Virus record (IMG/VR): IMGVR_UViG_3300039707_000004
Span: 1 to 25,877 of that record
From: a virus
DNA: 25,877 nucleotides
Strand: one strand, 5' to 3'
The translations under genes were made by a program, and so were the position numbers. The notes under the pieces were generated by a model. The model searched no databases. It was not told the DNA's origin and saw only the letters and a list, made by a program, of their open reading frames with translations. Shown here piece after piece: positions 7,523 through 22,200 of this stretch (the stretch's first letter is position 1; each line of letters starts with the position of its first letter).

Positions 7523-10500
7523 ATGAAGCAAGTTGGACCTATAACTGCGTTTTCCAATTCGTTGCATCAAATGAAGTACTGCTCACCAGGGGAAGATTTC
7601 CGCGAGGCAATGAATAGGGTAGCGTTTGGTCTAAAGGATTCGGATAACCACTACCATCGACTCAGACACATACTATTACCACAACGATGGTTGCCAGCCG
7701 GACGTGTTCAAGCAGCCGTTGGCTCGACGAAATGGGTTACACTGTTCAATTGTTTTGTTAGCGGTACAATTGCGGATAGTTATGTTGACGGCCCTGGCTC
7801 GATTATGGACAGAGCCAAGGAAGCAGCAGCCACCATGCGGATGGGCGGCGGCATCGGCTACGATTTCACACCCCTGCGTCCACGTGGCGAGATGATCGCC
7901 AAGCTCCAGAGCCAAGCAAGCGGCCCCGTCTCCTTCATGGAGATATTTGATGCCGTATGCCGAGCTACCTGCTCTTCCGGGCATCGTCGTGGCGCACAGA
8001 TGGGTATACTTCGTTGCTTGGATGGTGAGTCGCGAGTTCATACTCTGAACGGTATAGAAAAAATTAAGGATTTGGTAGGTACTCGTCCTTATGTTTATGC
8101 GTGTGATCCTAAGACGCGTAAGGTTCATGTAGTACAAGCGGATAAGGTTTTTGTGTCTGATACCAATAGGAAACTTATTCGTATCGTATTTGATACGAAG
8201 GATTCTATAGACTGCACACCAGATCATTTGATTATGCTCTCAAACGGGGAGTATGTTCAGGTAGGTAAGCTACGCCGTGGTGATAGTATAATGGCAATTA
8301 AGCACGGTATAAACCAGACAGGTAATACTGACCATTTTAGTAAGACTGTAGGGTGTACCAATGGGCGTGCCGAGTATGAACATCGTGTTATTGCTAGAGA
8401 TATTTTAGGTGAAATGGTGGACGCTAATTGGCATGTTCACCATAGAGACGAGGATAGTTGTAATAATGATCCATCTAATCTGGAAATGGTGAACAGGTCT
8501 GAACATGCGAAATCACATGCCAGTAACCTGAATGTTCATAGGTTGAGAATCGCTGCTGAAAGAAAAGGTAAGACCAGGGCTGAACTTTATGGGGAAGAAA
8601 AGGCTGCTTTGTGGGAGGCTCGTCGTGAAGAAAGTCGTAAGAAAACTATATCTAACCATAGGGTGGTAGATATAATACAGATTGGAACGGCTGAGGAAGT
8701 ATTCGACATTTCCTTACCTAAACTCCATAACTTTGCTGTTAGTGGAGTTTTTGTCCACAACTGTGATCACCCCGATATTGAAGAGTTCATTAATGCCAAA
8801 AACAACCAGGATAAGTTGACAGGGTTCAACATCTCGATCGCTGTCACCGATGAGTTCATGGAGTGTGTTCTTGAGGAGAAGGAGTTCCCCCTAAAGTGGG
8901 GTGGTAGAGTATACCGTTACGTTGACGCTAATACCCTCTGGGAAAAGATTATGCGCTCAACGTTCGATTGGGCAGAACCCGGCATCCTGTTCATCGACAC
9001 AATCAACAAGATGAACAACCTCTATTACGCCGAGACGATAGCTGCAACCAATCCATGCTGTTTAACAGGGGACACTTTAGTGGCGGTTGCTGGTCGCGGC
9101 CCGGTTCCAATTAGACAGTTAGCTGAGGAAGCTTCTCCTGTACCTGTATTCGCTAAAAATAAAATGTCCGGTGTAACTCATGTTAGTTGGGGGCGTGCTC
9201 CCCGATGGGTTCGTAAGGCTAACATCGTTAAAATTACTCTTGATGACGGGACTACAGTTCGTTGCTCCGATGACCATCATTTTCCGCTAAGAGATGGCAG
9301 GAGAATTAAGGCAAGAGACCTAAATCCAGGCGACTCACTTTTCCGTTTTGATGCTGAGCGGCATTGGAAAAGTAAGGAAATGATTGTTGATGGTCGCACT
9401 GAGCATCATCTGATTGCTGAGGCTAAGTTCGATCGTGAGTTTGAGTGGGGACAGCATATAGACCAGTTTCAGGTGCATCATATTAACCACAATCATTTTG
9501 ATAATGATTGGGATAATATTGATGTCGTAACTGTTAAGGAGCATCAGCTTACGCACCATCGTCAGGCTATAGCAATCACTGCACAAAATAGGTATGAACT
9601 ACCTGTAAATCATAAGGTTGTATCGGTTGAGCCAGATGGTTTTGAGGATGTCTACAACATATCAGTTGATAAGTACCATAACTATGCTATAGTAACGAGT
9701 GATGTAAAAGGTAAATTGTCTGGTGTTTACACCGAAAACAGTGAACAAGCCCTACCCCCATTCGGTGCCTGCCTACTCAGTTCGTTCAACCTCGTTAAGT
9801 ACCTAACATCACAGCCTGTTCTAGCCGGCAGTAACCCATGGTCATTTGATTATGACCAACTGATTGAGGACATCCCCATCGCCGTACGTGCTCTCGACAA
9901 TGCCATTGACAAAGCGAGATACCCCCTCGCCGAACAGAAAGCCGAAGCCCTCACAAAACGCAGAATGGGTATTGGTATTACTGGCCTCGCAAACACGGCT
10001 GAGGCTATGGGGTTCTCCTACGGATCATCAGACTTCCTGGCCTTTGAGGACAAGGTGCTTAGTACGATCAACGAACACTGCTACCGGGCCTCTGCTGAAC
10101 TGGCTGCTGAAAAGGGTGCCTTCCCGCTTTATGATGAAGATCGTTACCTAGCCGGCCAGTTCATCAAGACCCTGAGCGACGAAACCCAAGACATGATCCG
10201 TCGCAACGGCATTCGTAACAGTCACCTGACATCGATCGCTCCGACAGGTACAATAAGTCTCGCTGCTGACAATGTAAGCTCAGCACTAGAACCTGTCTTC
10301 TCCTACGAGACAACTCGTAGCATCCATACCCCAACCGGCGTCACGATTGAGAAGCTGCAAGACTACGGCTATGCTTTCCTTAACATCAAGGGTAAGCTGG
10401 CTAAGGATGTCACGGCTGATGAGCACCTTAGTGTGCTTGCCGTAGCTCAGAAGAACATCGACTCTGCCGCCTCAAAGACGATCAACATGGACGGCAGGAT

Positions 10501-10708
10501 CATGTCGTGGTCTGAGTTTAAGGACATCTATCGCAATGCCTGGGAGCGTGGCTGTAAGGGTGTAGCCACCTTTAATTCATCCGGCAAACGGATGGCGTTG
10601 CTGACAGGCTCCGAAGAGCCAAAGAAAGAAGAGCCAGAACAGATACAGTTTATCGAGGGTGCGTCGTGTGACTACGATCCGATGACGGGACGCGCTGTCT
10701 GTAACTAA
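7523..10708 (+). CDS. Ribonucleotide reductase, probably class II, with two inteins
   Basis: A 1061-residue precursor that splices to about 585 residues. It reduces ribonucleotides to deoxyribonucleotides for phage DNA synthesis. Extein motifs include LPAGRVQAA, LFNCFVSG (redox Cys77), MRMGGGIGYDFTPLRPRG, GFNISIAVTDEF, the active-site NPC|SEQ (split by intein 2), PPFGACLLSSFNL, and APTGTISLAADNVSSALEP. The compact length, LPAGR and NCFVSG contexts, and absence of a nearby small subunit favour an adenosylcobalamin-dependent (NrdJ-type) enzyme, though class I cannot be excluded by eye. The C-terminus carries two Cys (ASCDYD...AVCN) that could act in re-reduction. A strong hairpin follows the stop. 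Confidence 0.93.
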   Translation: MKQVGPITAFSNSLHQMKYCSPGEDFREAMNRVAFGLKDSDNHYHRLRHILLPQRWLPAGRVQAAVGSTKWVTLFNCFVSGTIADSYVDGPGSIMDRAKEAAATMRMGGGIGYDFTPLRPRGEMIAKLQSQASGPVSFMEIFDAVCRATCSSGHRRGAQMGILRCLDGESRVHTLNGIEKIKDLVGTRPYVYACDPKTRKVHVVQADKVFVSDTNRKLIRIVFDTKDSIDCTPDHLIMLSNGEYVQVGKLRRGDSIMAIKHGINQTGNTDHFSKTVGCTNGRAEYEHRVIARDILGEMVDANWHVHHRDEDSCNNDPSNLEMVNRSEHAKSHASNLNVHRLRIAAERKGKTRAELYGEEKAALWEARREESRKKTISNHRVVDIIQIGTAEEVFDISLPKLHNFAVSGVFVHNCDHPDIEEFINAKNNQDKLTGFNISIAVTDEFMECVLEEKEFPLKWGGRVYRYVDANTLWEKIMRSTFDWAEPGILFIDTINKMNNLYYAETIAATNPCCLTGDTLVAVAGRGPVPIRQLAEEASPVPVFAKNKMSGVTHVSWGRAPRWVRKANIVKITLDDGTTVRCSDDHHFPLRDGRRIKARDLNPGDSLFRFDAERHWKSKEMIVDGRTEHHLIAEAKFDREFEWGQHIDQFQVHHINHNHFDNDWDNIDVVTVKEHQLTHHRQAIAITAQNRYELPVNHKVVSVEPDGFEDVYNISVDKYHNYAIVTSDVKGKLSGVYTENSEQALPPFGACLLSSFNLVKYLTSQPVLAGSNPWSFDYDQLIEDIPIAVRALDNAIDKARYPLAEQKAEALTKRRMGIGITGLANTAEAMGFSYGSSDFLAFEDKVLSTINEHCYRASAELAAEKGAFPLYDEDRYLAGQFIKTLSDETQDMIRRNGIRNSHLTSIAPTGTISLAADNVSSALEPVFSYETTRSIHTPTGVTIEKLQDYGYAFLNIKGKLAKDVTADEHLSVLAVAQKNIDSAASKTINMDGRIMSWSEFKDIYRNAWERGCKGVATFNSSGKRMALLTGSEEPKKEEPEQIQFIEGASCDYDPMTGRAVCN
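8015..8761 (+). mobile_element. Intein 1 in ribonucleotide reductase, HNH type
   Basis: Residues 165-413 (249 aa), starting at Cys in ILR|CLDGE and ending VHN|C, with Cys414 as the downstream nucleophile. The Hint blocks are present: block A CLDGESRVHTLNG, block B with TPDH, and F/G FDISLPKLHNFAVSG...HN. The middle holds an HNH homing domain (WHVHHRDEDSCNNDPSNLEMV, about residues 303-325). The flanks rejoin as MGILR|CDHPDIEEF, a conserved reductase segment. The insert is visibly AT-richer than the exteins. Confidence 0.92.
9059..9739 (+). mobile_element. Intein 2 in ribonucleotide reductase active site, HNH type
   Basis: Residues 513-739 (227 aa), from Cys in NPC|CLTGDTLV to EN|S, with Ser740 as the downstream nucleophile. 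Removing it restores NPCSEQALPPFGACL, the catalytic loop, so the reductase should be inactive until splicing. Block B reads VRCSDDHHF and block F is VYNISVDKYHNYAIV. An HNH domain occupies about residues 648-680 (FQVHHINHNHFDNDWDNIDVV). The penultimate residue is Glu rather than the usual His. Confidence 0.9.
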
Positions 10709-10715
10709 AGGCAAT

Positions 10716-10742
10716 GAAGCCCTGGCTAATCCCCAGGGCTTC
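10716..10742 (+). terminator. Terminator after ribonucleotide reductase
   Basis: A perfect 10-bp stem (10716-10725 with 10733-10742, GAAGCCCTGG arm) and 7-nt loop start 8 nt after the reductase stop. A T5 run follows only after 8 nt, so intrinsic termination is likely but not textbook. Confidence 0.7.
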
Positions 10743-10754
10743 ACCCGATCTTTT

Positions 10755-11186
10755 TGGTACTCTACTTGCTGATGGATCGTTACGCCCAGATTGGTTCCCA
10801 CTTACCTTATGACTCATTCCTAGGTTCATGGCACTTCACCACATTGGTTCTCAACCGCACGATGATTTAATTCTGACGCATCAGGTTCTCTACCCTGTTC
10901 TGATTCACCTAGATCACATGGTACTCTGATACGGCGTGGTTCATTCACAATGTATGGTACTCATCAGTTCGATGACTCACCCAACTCGTCTGGTACTCAC
11001 TCAGGAATAGGGTTCATTCCTACTACTCCGGTTCTCTCGTGTGTTTTGATTCACCCATGGACTTTGGTACGCTTTTGCAGATTGGTTCGTTCGAAGGCAA
11101 TGGAACTCTAGCAACCTTTGACTCGTTGAAACTCAATCCCAACGGCGCTCTAGCTCGTTATGGTTAACTCGACTCTAATGGAAAGT
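10755..11186 (-). repeat. Array 1: about 24 alternating 18-bp-spaced motifs, - orientation
   Basis: This fills the 509-nt gene-free region 10709-11217 between two convergent genes. Read on +, motif starts fall at 10755, 10773, 10792, 10810, 10829, 10845, 10863, 10883, 10901, 10919, 10937, 10955, 10973, 10991, 11010, 11029, 11048, 11065, 11083, 11101, 11119, then less clearly 11143, 11161 and 11179. Steps are mostly 18. From 10883 to 11119 two forms alternate for 14 units: TGGTACTC-like (GAGTACCA on -) and TGRYTCAY-like (GTGAACCA or GTGAGTCA on -). Spacers of about 10 bp are not conserved. Hairpins at 10716-10742 and 11191-11208 separate the array from both genes. Confidence 0.9.
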
Positions 11187-15150: not shown

Positions 15151-16410
15151 TCATTTCTTTTTGAGGAGTATGTTATCGATCATCGTGTGTAGTAGGCTCG
15201 CTAGGCTCTCAGTTTGACCGCTGCTGATAGCAGCAAGCAACTCCTGATGCTGTCTAGCGAGCAACGCTCTAGTCAGGTTAGCTTCCTCCCGGATAGCATC
15301 CAGTATCGCGTCACTACTCGGATGATCTGCAAGCTGACGCTGAAAATCACTCGGTGGAGTTGGCTCTGTTACTGGTTGTACTTTAGCGGCCGCTCGATCA
15401 GCTTCCCTAGTGACTGCTCTAGCTGCCGTCTCATTAGCCAACACTCGCTCAGCGACTTTGAGCAAGTCTGCTGGATAGAAGTTGAGTGCGTTGCTTAAAG
15501 GTACATGGTTCTTAATTATCCATCGCGTGTTTAGACCACGCTCAGTTCTGGATATCTCCGTTGCCCATTTCTCACCGACTTTCTCGGCAAGTTGCATCTG
15601 GTTAATGTTCATCTTGATGCGAAGCACACGGATGAACGCACCGAGAGCCTCCGCTGTTGAGATAGTCTCTAGCTCACGCTGCCATATCGTCTCTTCGCCA
15701 ATCCCGGTACGCAAGTAGTCCTCCGTCGTACCGAGAACTCTAGCCACTTCACCTAACTTAGCAAAGTTAGGGTATATCCCGGTCTCTAGGTTAGTCAATT
15801 GCTGTACGGGTACCCCAGCTTGTTCTGCTACCATGCCAAGAGTTAGGTTTTTCTCGGTTCGTTTCGCACTGACTCTGCGACCGATGTCAGACATTCTCTC
15901 ATCCTCTTTCCCCACGAGGTAAGCTAGGGTTGTCTTCAACGCTGTCGATAGTTTCAATGCATGTTCGGGATCACCAACTTCGGCGTTCTCACTTTCGTAG
16001 ATGGCTATAACCTCTTCCGGAACTGAGGATAGGTTAGCCAAGTCCGCGCGTGACATCCGGGACTGCTCACGTGCGTATTGTAGACGACTCCCAAAGTTAG
16101 TTGGCATCACTAGTTTCGGGGTACGCGCATCCGCCCGGTCAGCCGCTTTCTCATCCTCAGCCAAGTCATCGGCCAACTCTTCTGGCGTTGATTTCTCAAT
16201 CTCGTTGAACAGTTGGTTGATCGTACGCTTCACATTCTCAGCAACACGCCAATCCGATGGACTTCGCGACGTGATGACAAATCGTCGTTGACCTTTGTAG
16301 GTGAAGTATAGACGTGGATGGTTATAGGTAACATCGAGAGAGACTGAATTGCCACCTTTTTCCTCGATGTATCTTTTATAGAGGATGTAATCCTCCCTGG
16401 TATTAACCAT
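15151..16410 (-). CDS. Regulator with three tandem XRE-type HTH domains
   Basis: A 419-residue protein. Residues 25-57 form a beta-rich module (HPRLYFTYKGQRRFVITSRSPSDWR) common in phage and plasmid proteins. Three successive helix-turn-helix domains of Cro/CI type then appear: about 107-166 (SRLQYAREQSRMSRADLANL), 176-236 (GRRVSAKRTEKNLTLGMVAE) and 257-321 (IRVLRIKMNINQMQLAEKVG). The C-terminal part is helical and charged. It may be a repressor or an architectural protein able to contact several sites at once. GGAGG precedes the ATG, which overlaps the stop of the upstream gene by 8 nt. Confidence 0.85.
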   Translation of the reverse strand: MVNTREDYILYKRYIEEKGGNSVSLDVTYNHPRLYFTYKGQRRFVITSRSPSDWRVAENVKRTINQLFNEIEKSTPEELADDLAEDEKAADRADARTPKLVMPTNFGSRLQYAREQSRMSRADLANLSSVPEEVIAIYESENAEVGDPEHALKLSTALKTTLAYLVGKEDERMSDIGRRVSAKRTEKNLTLGMVAEQAGVPVQQLTNLETGIYPNFAKLGEVARVLGTTEDYLRTGIGEETIWQRELETISTAEALGAFIRVLRIKMNINQMQLAEKVGEKWATEISRTERGLNTRWIIKNHVPLSNALNFYPADLLKVAERVLANETAARAVTREADRAAAKVQPVTEPTPPSDFQRQLADHPSSDAILDAIREEANLTRALLARQHQELLAAISSGQTESLASLLHTMIDNILLKKK

Positions 16411-19379: not shown

Positions 19380-19425
19380 GTACGCGTACGCGTAAGCGCT
19401 GAACCTTTCAAACCATGTCACCCAA

Positions 19426-19603
19426 GAGTACCAATAGCGAGACGTGAACCACGACTAGCTAGAGAACCCCTGGCAGTTGAGTAAGTCAATCATCGGACGA
19501 GCACCAATTTATGAGAACGAGTCAGTATCCTGATGAGCACCAATCCTGAAACACGAGTCATAACCAATTGTGTAAAGAGTACCAACTCGCGAATGTGTAA
19601 CCT
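19426..19603 (+). repeat. Array 2: about 10 alternating motifs upstream of HhH gene
   Basis: Motif ends (final A of the CCA/TCA, or equivalent) fall at 19433, 19451, 19469, 19488, 19506, 19524, 19542, 19560, 19584 and 19602, mostly 18 apart. Type A (GAGTACCA, GAGAACCC, GAGCACCA twice, GAGTACCA) alternates with type B (GTGAACCA, GTAAGTCA, ACGAGTCA twice, GTGTAACC). The array runs from just after the candidate promoter almost to the ribosome site of the next gene. It is shorter than arrays 1 and 3 and has + orientation. With the dyads and promoters listed, it accounts for the gene-free stretch 19193-19617. Confidence 0.85.
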
Positions 19604-19617
19604 AACGAGGACAGATC

Positions 19618-21552
19618 ATGAGTGATCTTAGTGGTGGTGATATCTCACCAATGGAAGAGTTTCTCGAACCTATCATGCGGTTGACGCGTGATATCAAGTC
19701 AGCCGCGTTTACCTTAGGGGACGACGAGGCAAGGTTTCTGGTAGACTTTTACTACATCATCCAGGAAGACCGGAAACGGTCCTATGCACAAGTCCGTGCC
19801 CTGGAGACCAACCAGGAACCAAATGAAATCATCACGTGGTTTGCTGGTCAGTCGAAGCGCTTTGAGAACGAGATTAAGGAAGTTCTCAACGTCTACACGA
19901 CCAACCACGAGATGGGACAATACATGCGTTGTTCGCCTGCTGGATCAGAGGTGAGAACGACGTTTCGGACCTACGAAAAGATAGAAAATCTTGAAACCGG
20001 CCAGTCGGTTACGTCGTTTGATCGGCAAGGTTCGTACCTTACGAAGCCTCAGCTTATTGAGGTTGCATCGAGACCTTATCATGGTGATTTGGTATTGTTG
20101 ACGTGTGACGCTACGTCAACAAGGACAACGCCAAATCATAGGTGGTTGGCTAAGCTTGATAAGAGCAAGGATGCTGGTGTTGTTGTCTACCTGATGCGGT
20201 CCGGTGATAAGTTCCGTGTTGGTCGTTGCTCTTTTTTCACGAAGGCAGCTAAGGGTTCCTGGCTTGTTAATTTGCGGCTACGGGCTAGTCAGGAACAGGC
20301 GTCTGTATGGGTTCTGAAAACGTTCTCATCAACCTATGAGGCTAACATCTACGAAGACTTTGTGTCCACTCATTATGGGTTAACCGAGTGGCAGTTTAAG
20401 CCTTATCGTGGTAATCACGGTGGGCTTGTTGACCAGAGAGCAACGGATAAGTTGTTTCGTATGCTTGACGTTAAGGCTCAGTACGAGCGTGCGGCACAGT
20501 GTTTGCTTGACCATGGTAAGCACATTGACTTTCCGTTCTGGTCATGGACCGGATCAGTCAAGAAGCAAAGCCCAACACAAGCGATTGAAACGGCTGCTTA
20601 TAACCTGATGCCGGATGTGATGCTTGTGCCTGTGCCAACTAGTAGTTTTGGAAAGGTTGATTGGATACCGATAACTGACCTTTCCCGAGAACGTTATGAT
20701 GGGCTTGTCTATAGCTTGGATGTAGCAAGACATCATAAGTTCATCCAGGATGATGTAATAACCTGCAACAGTATCTACGGCATCGGCCCGGTACTCAGTG
20801 CCGGGTTGCTCGCTCATATCGACATCTCCAAAGCGAGCACGGTCGGCAAGATATGGCAGTACGCTGGTATCGCCGGTCCTATTGCCTCAGTCGATACCAT
20901 GCGCTTCCAGTATCGCGTAACCTTTGACTACGAGGTTGACTTAAACAACCCACCGAAGCTCATGCTAGAGAAGAAACAGGAAGCTATTTACCTTTTCCCG
21001 GACGGTGAGACCGAAGAGGGTAACAGTATCCTTCTCTATCAGGTTATCTTACCCGGTGATGAGAAGCCGCCTAAGGTCGTGGCACCGAACAACATCACCT
21101 ACGTATGTACGAAGAAAGTGCTGTCCGGTCAGACTCCCTGGCTGAAAGGACAGAAGCGTCCGTTCAATGCTAACCTCAAGGTTCTGCTCTGGAAGGTAGG
21201 GCAGAGCTTCATGAAGTTCAGCAATCGGCCTGAATGCTACTACGGTAAGGTCTACCGCGACCGCAAGATTTACGAAATCGAGCGTAACGAAGCTGGGGAG
21301 TTAGCGGAACAGGCTGCGGCTAAGTTGCTCGTCCTTAAGGATAAGACCACGGACGTTTACAAGTGCTACGAGTCTGGTAAGCTGCCGCCCGGTCACATTG
21401 ATGCCAGGGCACGTAGGTATGCGGTGAAGCTGTTCCTCGCCCATATGTGGGAGACTTGGTACAAGCTGCACTTCAAAAAGGAGCCGCCGAAGCCCTATCC
21501 GATTGCGATCCTGGGCCATGCGGATTATATCCCACCGCCAGTGAAACTCTAA
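19618..21552 (+). CDS. Transposase_20/HhH-domain DNA-binding protein with intein
   Basis: A 644-residue precursor giving about 364 residues after splicing. Residues 1-104 are helical. Directly after the intein, SIYGIGPVLSAGLLAHI...VGKIWQYAGIAG matches the helix-hairpin-helix domain at the C-terminus of IS110/IS116/IS902 transposases (Transposase_20). The remainder ends RRYAVKLFLAHMWETWYKLHF...AILGHADYIPPPVKL, as in phage proteins often labelled 'transposase'. The catalytic DEDD/RuvC-like N-terminal domain of IS110 is not visible, so I read it as a structure-specific DNA-binding protein, not an active transposase. AACGAGGA precedes the ATG. Non-coding arrays lie on both sides of the gene. Confidence 0.8.
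   Translation: MSDLSGGDISPMEEFLEPIMRLTRDIKSAAFTLGDDEARFLVDFYYIIQEDRKRSYAQVRALETNQEPNEIITWFAGQSKRFENEIKEVLNVYTTNHEMGQYMRCSPAGSEVRTTFRTYEKIENLETGQSVTSFDRQGSYLTKPQLIEVASRPYHGDLVLLTCDATSTRTTPNHRWLAKLDKSKDAGVVVYLMRSGDKFRVGRCSFFTKAAKGSWLVNLRLRASQEQASVWVLKTFSSTYEANIYEDFVSTHYGLTEWQFKPYRGNHGGLVDQRATDKLFRMLDVKAQYERAAQCLLDHGKHIDFPFWSWTGSVKKQSPTQAIETAAYNLMPDVMLVPVPTSSFGKVDWIPITDLSRERYDGLVYSLDVARHHKFIQDDVITCNSIYGIGPVLSAGLLAHIDISKASTVGKIWQYAGIAGPIASVDTMRFQYRVTFDYEVDLNNPPKLMLEKKQEAIYLFPDGETEEGNSILLYQVILPGDEKPPKVVAPNNITYVCTKKVLSGQTPWLKGQKRPFNANLKVLLWKVGQSFMKFSNRPECYYGKVYRDRKIYEIERNEAGELAEQAAAKLLVLKDKTTDVYKCYESGKLPPGHIDARARRYAVKLFLAHMWETWYKLHFKKEPPKPYPIAILGHADYIPPPVKL
19930..20769 (+). mobile_element. Intein in HhH gene with GIY-YIG-like insert
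   Basis: Residues 105-384 (280 aa), from MR|CSPAGSEV to TCN|S. Hint block B is TTPNH (H174) and block F is YDGLVYSLDVARHHKFI; the end is CN rather than HN. No LAGLIDADG or HNH motif is seen. The insert instead carries VVYLMR (188-194) and FRVGRC (199-204), spaced like a GIY-YIG pair, followed by EANIYEDFVSTHYG. Splicing restores QYMR|SIYGIGPV, at the conserved HhH hairpin. Confidence 0.85.
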
Positions 21553-21559
21553 CCTAACT

Positions 21560-21591
21560 AAATAGGTGGTGTGTAACAGCACCACCTATTT
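21560..21591 (+). terminator. Terminator after HhH gene
   Basis: A perfect 12-bp stem (21560-21571 with 21580-21591, AAATAGGTGGTG arm) and 8-nt loop start 8 nt after the stop. The A/T-rich stem base gives an ATTTA tail. It separates the gene from array 3. Confidence 0.8.
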
Positions 21592-21594
21592 ATC

Positions 21595-22140
21595 TGAACC
21601 AGATATGGACGTAGCGTACCAAGGAAATGACGTGAACCATGGTTGTGACGAGTACCATTTAACACGTGTGAGTCAAAGGTGATAAGAGTACCAAAAGACG
21701 AGAGCCGAGCCATGTATGTGAGGAGTACCATTATAAGTCGTGTGAACCACGAAGCTACGTGAGGACCATCGCCTTTGGGTGAACTATCCACCGGGGTTGA
21801 GTACCATAAAGTGCGTGTGAGTCAAAGGTGATAAGAGTACCAATATAGGAGAATGAACCAAGAATCGGATGAGTACCAAAATTGAAGGGTGAGTCATGGG
21901 TAAGACGAGTACCATCGGACTTAAATGAGCCAAACCGATTTGCGAGTGCCAAAAAGTGCGAGGCGTGAGTCATAGAGAAGAAGAGAACCAATCGTGATGA
22001 GTAAACCCAAGCCATGGATGAGCACCACAAGCCCCTATGTGAACCATCAGGAAGAGTGAGTACCATTGACCTTACGAACGAGCCAGGCTAGACACGAGAA
22101 CCAATAATCATGTGTGAATCATGGATTAGGTGAGAGCCAT
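21595..22140 (+). repeat. Array 3: about 30 alternating 18-bp-spaced motifs
   Basis: This occupies nearly all of the 648-nt gene-free region 21553-22200. Type A units (GAGTACCA, variants GAGGACCA, GAGTGCCA, GAGAACCA, GAGCACCA, GAGAGCCA) end at 21657, 21693, 21730, 21768, 21806, 21842, 21878, 21914, 21951, 21990, 22027, 22065, 22103 and 22139, that is every 36-39 bp. A type B unit (GTGAACCA, GTGAGTCA, ATGAGCCA, GTGAATCA) lies midway between most pairs, for example at 21675, 21749, 21824, 21860, 21896, 21932, 21972, 22046 and 22121. Spacers are not conserved apart from one 30-bp duplication. Unlike CRISPR, repeats and spacers are each only 7-10 bp. Confidence 0.92.
21665..21843 (+). repeat. 30-bp exact direct repeat inside array 3
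   Basis: The segments 21665-21694 and 21814-21843 are identical over 30 bp, including the normally variable spacer between a type B (GTGAGTCA) and a type A (GAGTACCA) unit. The offset is 149 bp. This points to array growth by local duplication followed by spacer drift. Confidence 0.9.
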
Positions 22141-22152
22141 TGAGATGTAGTG

Positions 22153-22185
22153 CAGCCCACTAGGAATGTGCTAAACGGTGGGCTG
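22153..22185 (-). terminator. Terminator-like hairpin of - strand cluster
   Basis: An 8-bp stem CAGCCCAC / GTGGGCTG (22153-22160 with 22178-22185) with a 17-nt loop lies 16 nt past the stop of the - gene ending at 22201. There is no T run, so termination is uncertain. Confidence 0.5.
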
Positions 22186-22200
22186 ACACTGACGCAAGGG

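What the first reader, a model, noticed from the sequence alone, without database searches (positions are those of the whole stretch)
19426..22140. Possible system: HhH (Transposase_20) protein flanked by its own arrays
The gene at 19618-21552 keeps the IS110-type helix-hairpin-helix segment but shows no DEDD catalytic domain, and has arrays of the same family on both sides. In IS110 elements the non-coding ends matter to recombinase function (established). Here the flanks are instead phased DNA motifs. Inference: the protein recognises or bridges the arrays for genome replication, segregation or structure. The triple-XRE protein (15151-16410) is the rival candidate binder.
Basis: inference. 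Interest (0 to 1): 0.8.

Follow-up and report, generated by a model that had tools for sequence, protein, structure and literature searches.

The report
Phage RNA-guided TIGR-Tas system with intein
This phage carries a TIGR-Tas system, a recently described relative of the IS110 transposases in which one protein is steered to DNA by short two-part guide RNAs made from repeat arrays; the system is known, but this copy has a self-splicing insert in its protein gene and a third guide array elsewhere on the contig.

Summary
They are a known kind: a dual-repeat TIGR-Tas system (Faure et al., Science 2025, PMC12045711). The spliced protein matches solved TasR (phmmer 2.9e-11). The precursor passes NCBI's curated TIGR_Tas model (170 bits, cut-off 100). 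The modelled fold of an intein-free homologue has only TasH/TasR as significant PDB hits. No nuclease or DEDD domain was found, so it is a TasA.

The "18-bp phased motifs" are alternating edge (GUGARYCA) and loop (GAGUACCA) repeats of ~36-nt guide units. Motif-free scanning finds such arrays at 74 of 80 relatives' loci; no shuffled control reaches the threshold. Arrays run sense with tas in 74 loci, antisense in 2.

New in detail: a 280-aa intein exactly before the Nop helix-hairpin-helix, and a third array 8 kb away on the other strand. In relatives, spacer pairs joined by the loop repeat travel together while edge junctions break (36/54 vs 10/63 kept, p = 1.9e-8). No target was found in the phage itself, in relatives, or above control among virus contigs; what the guides aim at remains open.

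The parts
19618..21552 (+). tas gene (TasA type), precursor of 644 aa; 364 aa after intein removal
   Evidence: NCBIfam NF052498 170.3 bits; phmmer of the spliced protein to TasR 9mty 2.9e-11; alignment with 13 homologues
19930..20769 (+). in-frame 280-aa intein, aa 105-384, inserted directly before SIYGIGPV (Nop helix-hairpin-helix)
   Evidence: Pfam Intein_splicing; 36-37% identity to SPO1-group helicase inteins; gap in all homologues
19407..19602 (+). 5' TIGR array, about 5 units, starting after and ending in truncated edge repeats just upstream of the tas start codon
21594..22152 (+). 3' TIGR array, about 15 edge-spacer-loop-spacer units
   Evidence: chain of 13 vs at most 4 in shuffles
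21559..21592 (+). perfect hairpin between tas stop codon and 3' array
   Evidence: RNA fold -20.9 kcal/mol, z -6.7
22149..22186 (+). hairpin directly after the truncated last edge repeat of the 3' array (terminator-like, no T-run)
   Evidence: RNA fold -15.6 kcal/mol, z -2.5
10737..11168 (-). third TIGR array in trans, about 12 irregular units, same repeat family
10713..10745 (-). terminator hairpin at the truncated last edge repeat of the trans array
   Evidence: z -5.3

Best explanation
A phage-encoded dual-repeat TIGR-Tas system of the nuclease-less (TasA) type. Supported by sequence: a Nop-domain Tas protein beside arrays of alternating edge and loop repeats with variable spacers. Inferred from the studied relatives: the arrays are transcribed; a host RNase working with Tas cuts each edge repeat to give roughly 36-nt tigRNAs (half edge, spacer A, loop, spacer B, half edge); a Tas dimer holds the box C/D-like ends of both repeats; spacer A pairs with one DNA strand and spacer B with the other, opening and bending a 16-18 bp target. 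With no nuclease domain, the complex should bind and block rather than cut. The protein must first splice out a 280-aa intein that separates its N-terminal helices from the Nop helix-hairpin-helix, so function probably depends on splicing. The targets are probably outside the phage (host or competing elements).
For: NCBIfam TIGR_Tas equivalog passed by the window protein and two homologues. phmmer/hmmsearch hits to TasR and TasH ahead of IS110. Homologue fold matches TasH/TasR first. De novo 36-nt arrays at 74 of 80 relatives' loci, sense to tas in 74 against 2 antisense, median 21 nt from the stop codon. Truncated edge repeat plus hairpin at array ends in the window. Spacer pairs across the loop repeat are inherited together. 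No nuclease domain in the exteins. No self-targets.
Against: No RNA data exist for this locus. The window's units are irregular and its first repeat positions (box D) are degenerate compared with relatives. The intein's penultimate residue is Cys rather than the usual His, so splicing is not certain. No target was found anywhere.
Confidence: 0.9

Rival explanations
1. One reading: duplex-DNA repeats (iteron-, partition- or scaffold-like sites) bound by the HhH protein for replication, segregation or genome structure.
For: Regular short repeats flank the gene.
Against: Arrays are sense to the gene in 74 loci against 2, have truncated ends with hairpins, alternate two repeats with variable spacers, and pair with a family whose studied members use such arrays as guide RNAs (PMC12045711).
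Confidence: 0.04
2. Same TIGR-Tas locus, but inactive: the intein no longer splices and the irregular arrays are decaying.
For: Irregular spacing (16-22 nt) and degenerate repeats; intein ends Cys-Asn rather than His-Asn; no other sampled relative has the intein.
Against: The 644-codon frame is open throughout and conserved Tas residues are retained. Repeat cores are conserved across three arrays.
Confidence: 0.15
3. An IS110-family transposase or its remnant with non-coding ends.
For: Weak PF02371 hit and the PHROG label 'transposase'.
Against: No DEDD domain. The two homologues score 26.7-28.8 bits against NCBIfam IS110 (cut-off 140) and the window protein does not appear at E 0.1, while all three pass the TIGR-Tas model. 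Many-unit arrays instead of one bridge RNA.
Confidence: 0.01

Closest known systems
TIGR-TasA, dual-repeat type (Flavonifractor plautii FpTIGR; Faure et al. 2025, PMC12045711)
   Same: Solo Nop-type protein without nuclease; adjacent arrays of two alternating repeats with short spacers and ~36-nt units; truncated edge repeats at array ends; found in tailed phages
   Different: Intein inside the Nop protein, an extra ~80-aa insertion after the HhH segment, irregular unit spacing, and a third array in trans about 8 kb away. The word intein does not occur in that paper's main text
TIGR-TasR / TasH (PDB 9mty; 21kl and related)
   Same: Homologous Nop domain by sequence and fold; repeats ending in CCA/CA
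   Different: No RuvC or HNH domain here, so DNA cutting is not expected
IS110/IS621 bridge-RNA recombinases (8wt6)
   Same: Shared C-terminal RNA-binding (Transposase_20) segment; weaker fold and profile matches
   Different: No DEDD catalytic domain; a multi-unit guide array instead of one bridge RNA
Box C/D snoRNP Nop5/Prp31
   Same: Nop-domain logic and paired box C/D-like motifs (as stated in PMC12045711)
   Different: DNA rather than RNA targets and no methylase; the relation was not tested here and neither protein appeared among the fold hits shown

Membership tests
TIGR-Tas (dual-repeat) | Nop-domain Tas protein homologous to TasR/TasH | tested here: met
   NF052498 170.3 bits, cut-off 100; phmmer 9mty 2.9e-11, TasH 5.4e-6; fold of homologue L007
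TIGR-Tas (dual-repeat) | Adjacent array of two alternating 8-12 nt repeats with ~8-12 nt variable spacers, ~36-nt unit | tested here: met
   Window units, chain of 13 vs at most 4 in shuffles; 74 of 80 relatives
TIGR-Tas (dual-repeat) | Box C (CCA-type) and box D motifs shared by edge and loop repeats | tested here: inconclusive
   Both repeats end in YCA/CCA in the window. The box D equivalent is clear in relatives (GA at the start of both repeats) but degenerate in the window
[quoted passage not shown]
   Trans array: truncated edge runs into a terminator hairpin. 3' array: truncated edge plus hairpin without T-run. The 5' array ends at the tas leader instead
TIGR-Tas (dual-repeat) | Array transcribed and processed to ~36-nt tigRNAs bound by Tas | not testable with these tools
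   Needs RNA sequencing
TIGR-Tas (dual-repeat) | tigRNA-guided DNA binding on both strands | not testable with these tools
   Target searches only gave chance-level results
TasA subtype | No fused HNH or RuvC nuclease | tested here: met
   No such Pfam hit in the exteins or in 13 homologues; N-extein is helical
IS110 transposase | N-terminal DEDD catalytic domain | tested here: not met
   No hit at E up to 1 in the window protein or up to 0.1 in homologues
IS110 transposase | NCBIfam IS110 equivalog cut-off (140 bits) | tested here: not met
   28.8 and 26.7 bits in two homologues; window protein not listed at E up to 0.1
Iteron/partition-type DNA site arrays | Duplex repeat sites bound by the linked protein | not testable with these tools
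   Circumstantially disfavoured by strand bias and variable spacers

The most novel reading that the evidence does not exclude
Splicing of the intein acts as a switch on an RNA-guided DNA binder: TasA becomes active only after splicing, then serves guides from three arrays, one in trans, to silence competing genetic elements without cutting. In this clade, guide arrays would be rebuilt by shuffling whole tigRNA cassettes at edge repeats.
Probability: 0.2. Interest if true: 0.6.

Novelty: new member of a known kind. Interest (0 to 1): 0.4.

Why it matters
TIGR-Tas was described in 2025, and its natural targets, array turnover and the role of nuclease-less TasA are open. This clade has at least 394 relatives among virus contigs and offers many arrays for studying turnover. 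The linkage pattern (spacer pairs kept across the loop, broken at the edge) is an evolutionary argument, independent of RNA sequencing, for what the guide unit is and how arrays change. An intein inside a Tas protein is an unusual detail that is easy to test. The PHROG label 'transposase' (phrog_4285) evidently covers Tas proteins.

Tried and rejected
Duplex-DNA sites, IS110 element, and the XRE protein as binder: see the rivals. Self-targeting: own spacer pairs against own record, four geometries, gaps 0-4, against re-paired spacers: no excess. Targets in relatives: 11 exact 16-nt hits against a mean of 11.3 for re-paired spacers; with 9-nt spacers, 3 against 7.5 at one mismatch. IMG/VR scans: two 18-nt targets from units shared by several arrays hit two and one gene families, without convincing further matches from the same arrays. 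Two 16-nt targets gave 70 and 30 hits; the larger clusters lie in genes that look like a phage SSB and a tail sheath (own reading of the translations), but two patterns with one half scrambled gave similar numbers and cluster sizes, so they are taken as chance. The early target searches used 9-nt spacers; relatives show 8 nt, so the main test was repeated. A fixed-period scan misses the window's arrays because their spacing drifts, and many 36-period stretches in the largest records have low-complexity consensus and are not TIGR arrays. A genome-contig scan found one relative, on a short MAG contig, so no reliable host was obtained. Named phages: only distant hits, among them Salicola phage CGphi29, the paper's TasH phage; plasmids: none.

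Full report
WHAT WAS CHECKED. The window is a complete IMG/VR virus record of 25,877 bases, itself possibly a fragment, with phage genes for a gp32-like SSB, a UvsX/RecA-type recombinase, SbcC/D-type proteins, an intein-bearing ribonucleotide reductase and an HNH endonuclease. The ORF 19618-21552 encodes 644 aa. Pfam finds an intein-splicing domain and a weak Transposase_20 segment. The intein runs from Cys105 to Asn384, followed by Ser385; removal gives 364 aa. Alignment with 13 intein-free homologues places the insertion directly before the conserved SIYGIGPV segment. The other members of the family cluster have ORFs of 220-411 aa, so no other sampled copy seems to carry such an insert.

THE ARRAYS. 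On the + strand, arrays lie at about 19407-19602 and 21594-22152. A third of the same repeat family lies at about 10737-11168 on the - strand. The loop-type core is GAGTACCA and the edge-type core GTGARYCA; they alternate with intervals of about 10 nt. The longest chain is 13 repeats, against at most 4 in 100 dinucleotide-preserving shuffles. The 3' array and the trans array end in a truncated edge repeat directly followed by a hairpin. A perfect hairpin separates the tas stop codon from the 3' array.

RELATIVES. With the C-extein as query, 16 relatives were found in IMG/VR; 13 of them carry periodic arrays detectable with the window's own motif. An alignment query found 394 relatives, of which the best 80 (with some redundancy, and including earlier loci) were examined. 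A test using no motif (six consecutive units, at least five of six identical per column) gave a 36- or 37-bp array at 74 of 80 loci (one locus's best period was 39), with three more just below threshold; block-shuffled controls never exceeded 9 columns. Typical units are two 10-nt repeats with 8-nt spacers, e.g. GAACGAGTCA-8-GAGAGAACCA-8. Arrays are sense to tas in 74 loci and antisense in 2, downstream in 65 and upstream in 11, with a median of 21 nt from the stop codon to the end of the first repeat.

IDENTITY. The arrays match the published TIGR architecture: alternating 8-12 nt edge and loop repeats, ~9-nt spacers, 36-nt tigRNAs, truncated edge repeats at the ends, and a Nop-domain protein related to IS110 (PMC12045711). 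The protein agrees. NCBIfam NF052498, 'TIGR-Tas system RNA-guided endonuclease', is passed at 170.3 bits with a cut-off of 100. That family name says endonuclease, but no nuclease domain is present here, so TasA is the fitting subtype. phmmer of the spliced sequence hits TasR 9mty (2.9e-11) and TasH (5.4e-6) before IS621 (0.32). The AlphaFold2 model of homologue L007 (mean pLDDT 82.7) has only TasH and TasR chains below E 1e-3 in the PDB, followed by IS110-family recombinases. The window precursor modelled well only in parts of the exteins.

HOW IT WORKS. Supported by sequence: the protein-array linkage, the sense orientation, the repeat and spacer layout, and the absence of a nuclease. Inferred from the studied relatives (PMC12045711): processing into tigRNAs by a host RNase with Tas, a Tas dimer holding both repeats, spacer A and spacer B pairing with opposite strands, and bending and opening of the target. 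Inferred here: without a nuclease the complex blocks transcription or replication of its targets, and the intein must splice first.

ARRAY EVOLUTION (extra result). Among 49 non-redundant records with assignable repeats, for spacers seen in two records the right-hand neighbour across a loop repeat is the same in 36 of 54 cases, but across an edge repeat in only 10 of 63 (Fisher p = 1.9e-8; raw pairwise counts). So spacer A-loop-spacer B behaves as a cassette and most breaks fall at edge repeats. This agrees with the tigRNA unit and supports the edge/loop assignment. The records share ancestry, so the p-value is only indicative.

TRANS ARRAYS. The window's third array is about 8 kb from tas on the other strand. 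Records G007 (arrays at about 11, 24 and 81 kb, tas at 30 kb) and G009 (about 1.2-2 kb, tas at 20-21 kb) also hold remote arrays with the same repeats as those near tas.

TARGETS. None found. Own genomes, relatives' genomes and selected IMG/VR scans gave chance levels; patterns with one half scrambled gave similar hit numbers and clustering. The targets most likely lie in hosts or co-occurring elements that could not be identified here; this remains open.

JUDGEMENT. The system has been known since 2025, so the locus is a new member of a known kind. The intein and the trans array are its unusual points.

Noticed in passing
window 7523-10708 (+): Ribonucleotide reductase gene with two Intein_splicing and two HNH stretches: this phage carries inteins in at least two genes.
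   Followed up: no
PHROG family phrog_4285: Labelled 'transposase', but all 13 aligned Tas homologues match it; the label is probably wrong for this family.
   Followed up: partly
L008:9680-10636 and L013:9644-10636: Their Tas proteins carry an insertion with a CxxCHG...C pattern after GLLAHI, possibly zinc-binding, at a different place from the window's insertion.
   Followed up: no
records G007 and G009 (loci L026-L036): TIGR arrays scattered tens of kilobases from the single tas gene.
   Followed up: partly
L191 (JACQNC010000010.1): A short contig filed under a Woesearchaeota MAG carries a tas gene followed by a TIGR-like array; possibly a misbinned virus contig.
   Followed up: no
window 19930-20769: The Tas intein resembles inteins of SPO1-group helicase genes. 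Its middle part looks faintly like a degenerate GIY-YIG nuclease by eye; no profile supports this.
   Followed up: no
window 21664-21692 and 21813-21841: The same edge-spacer-loop stretch (GTGAGTCA AAGGTGATAA GAGTACCA) occurs twice in the 3' array with different following spacers, a break inside a unit rather than at an edge.
   Followed up: no
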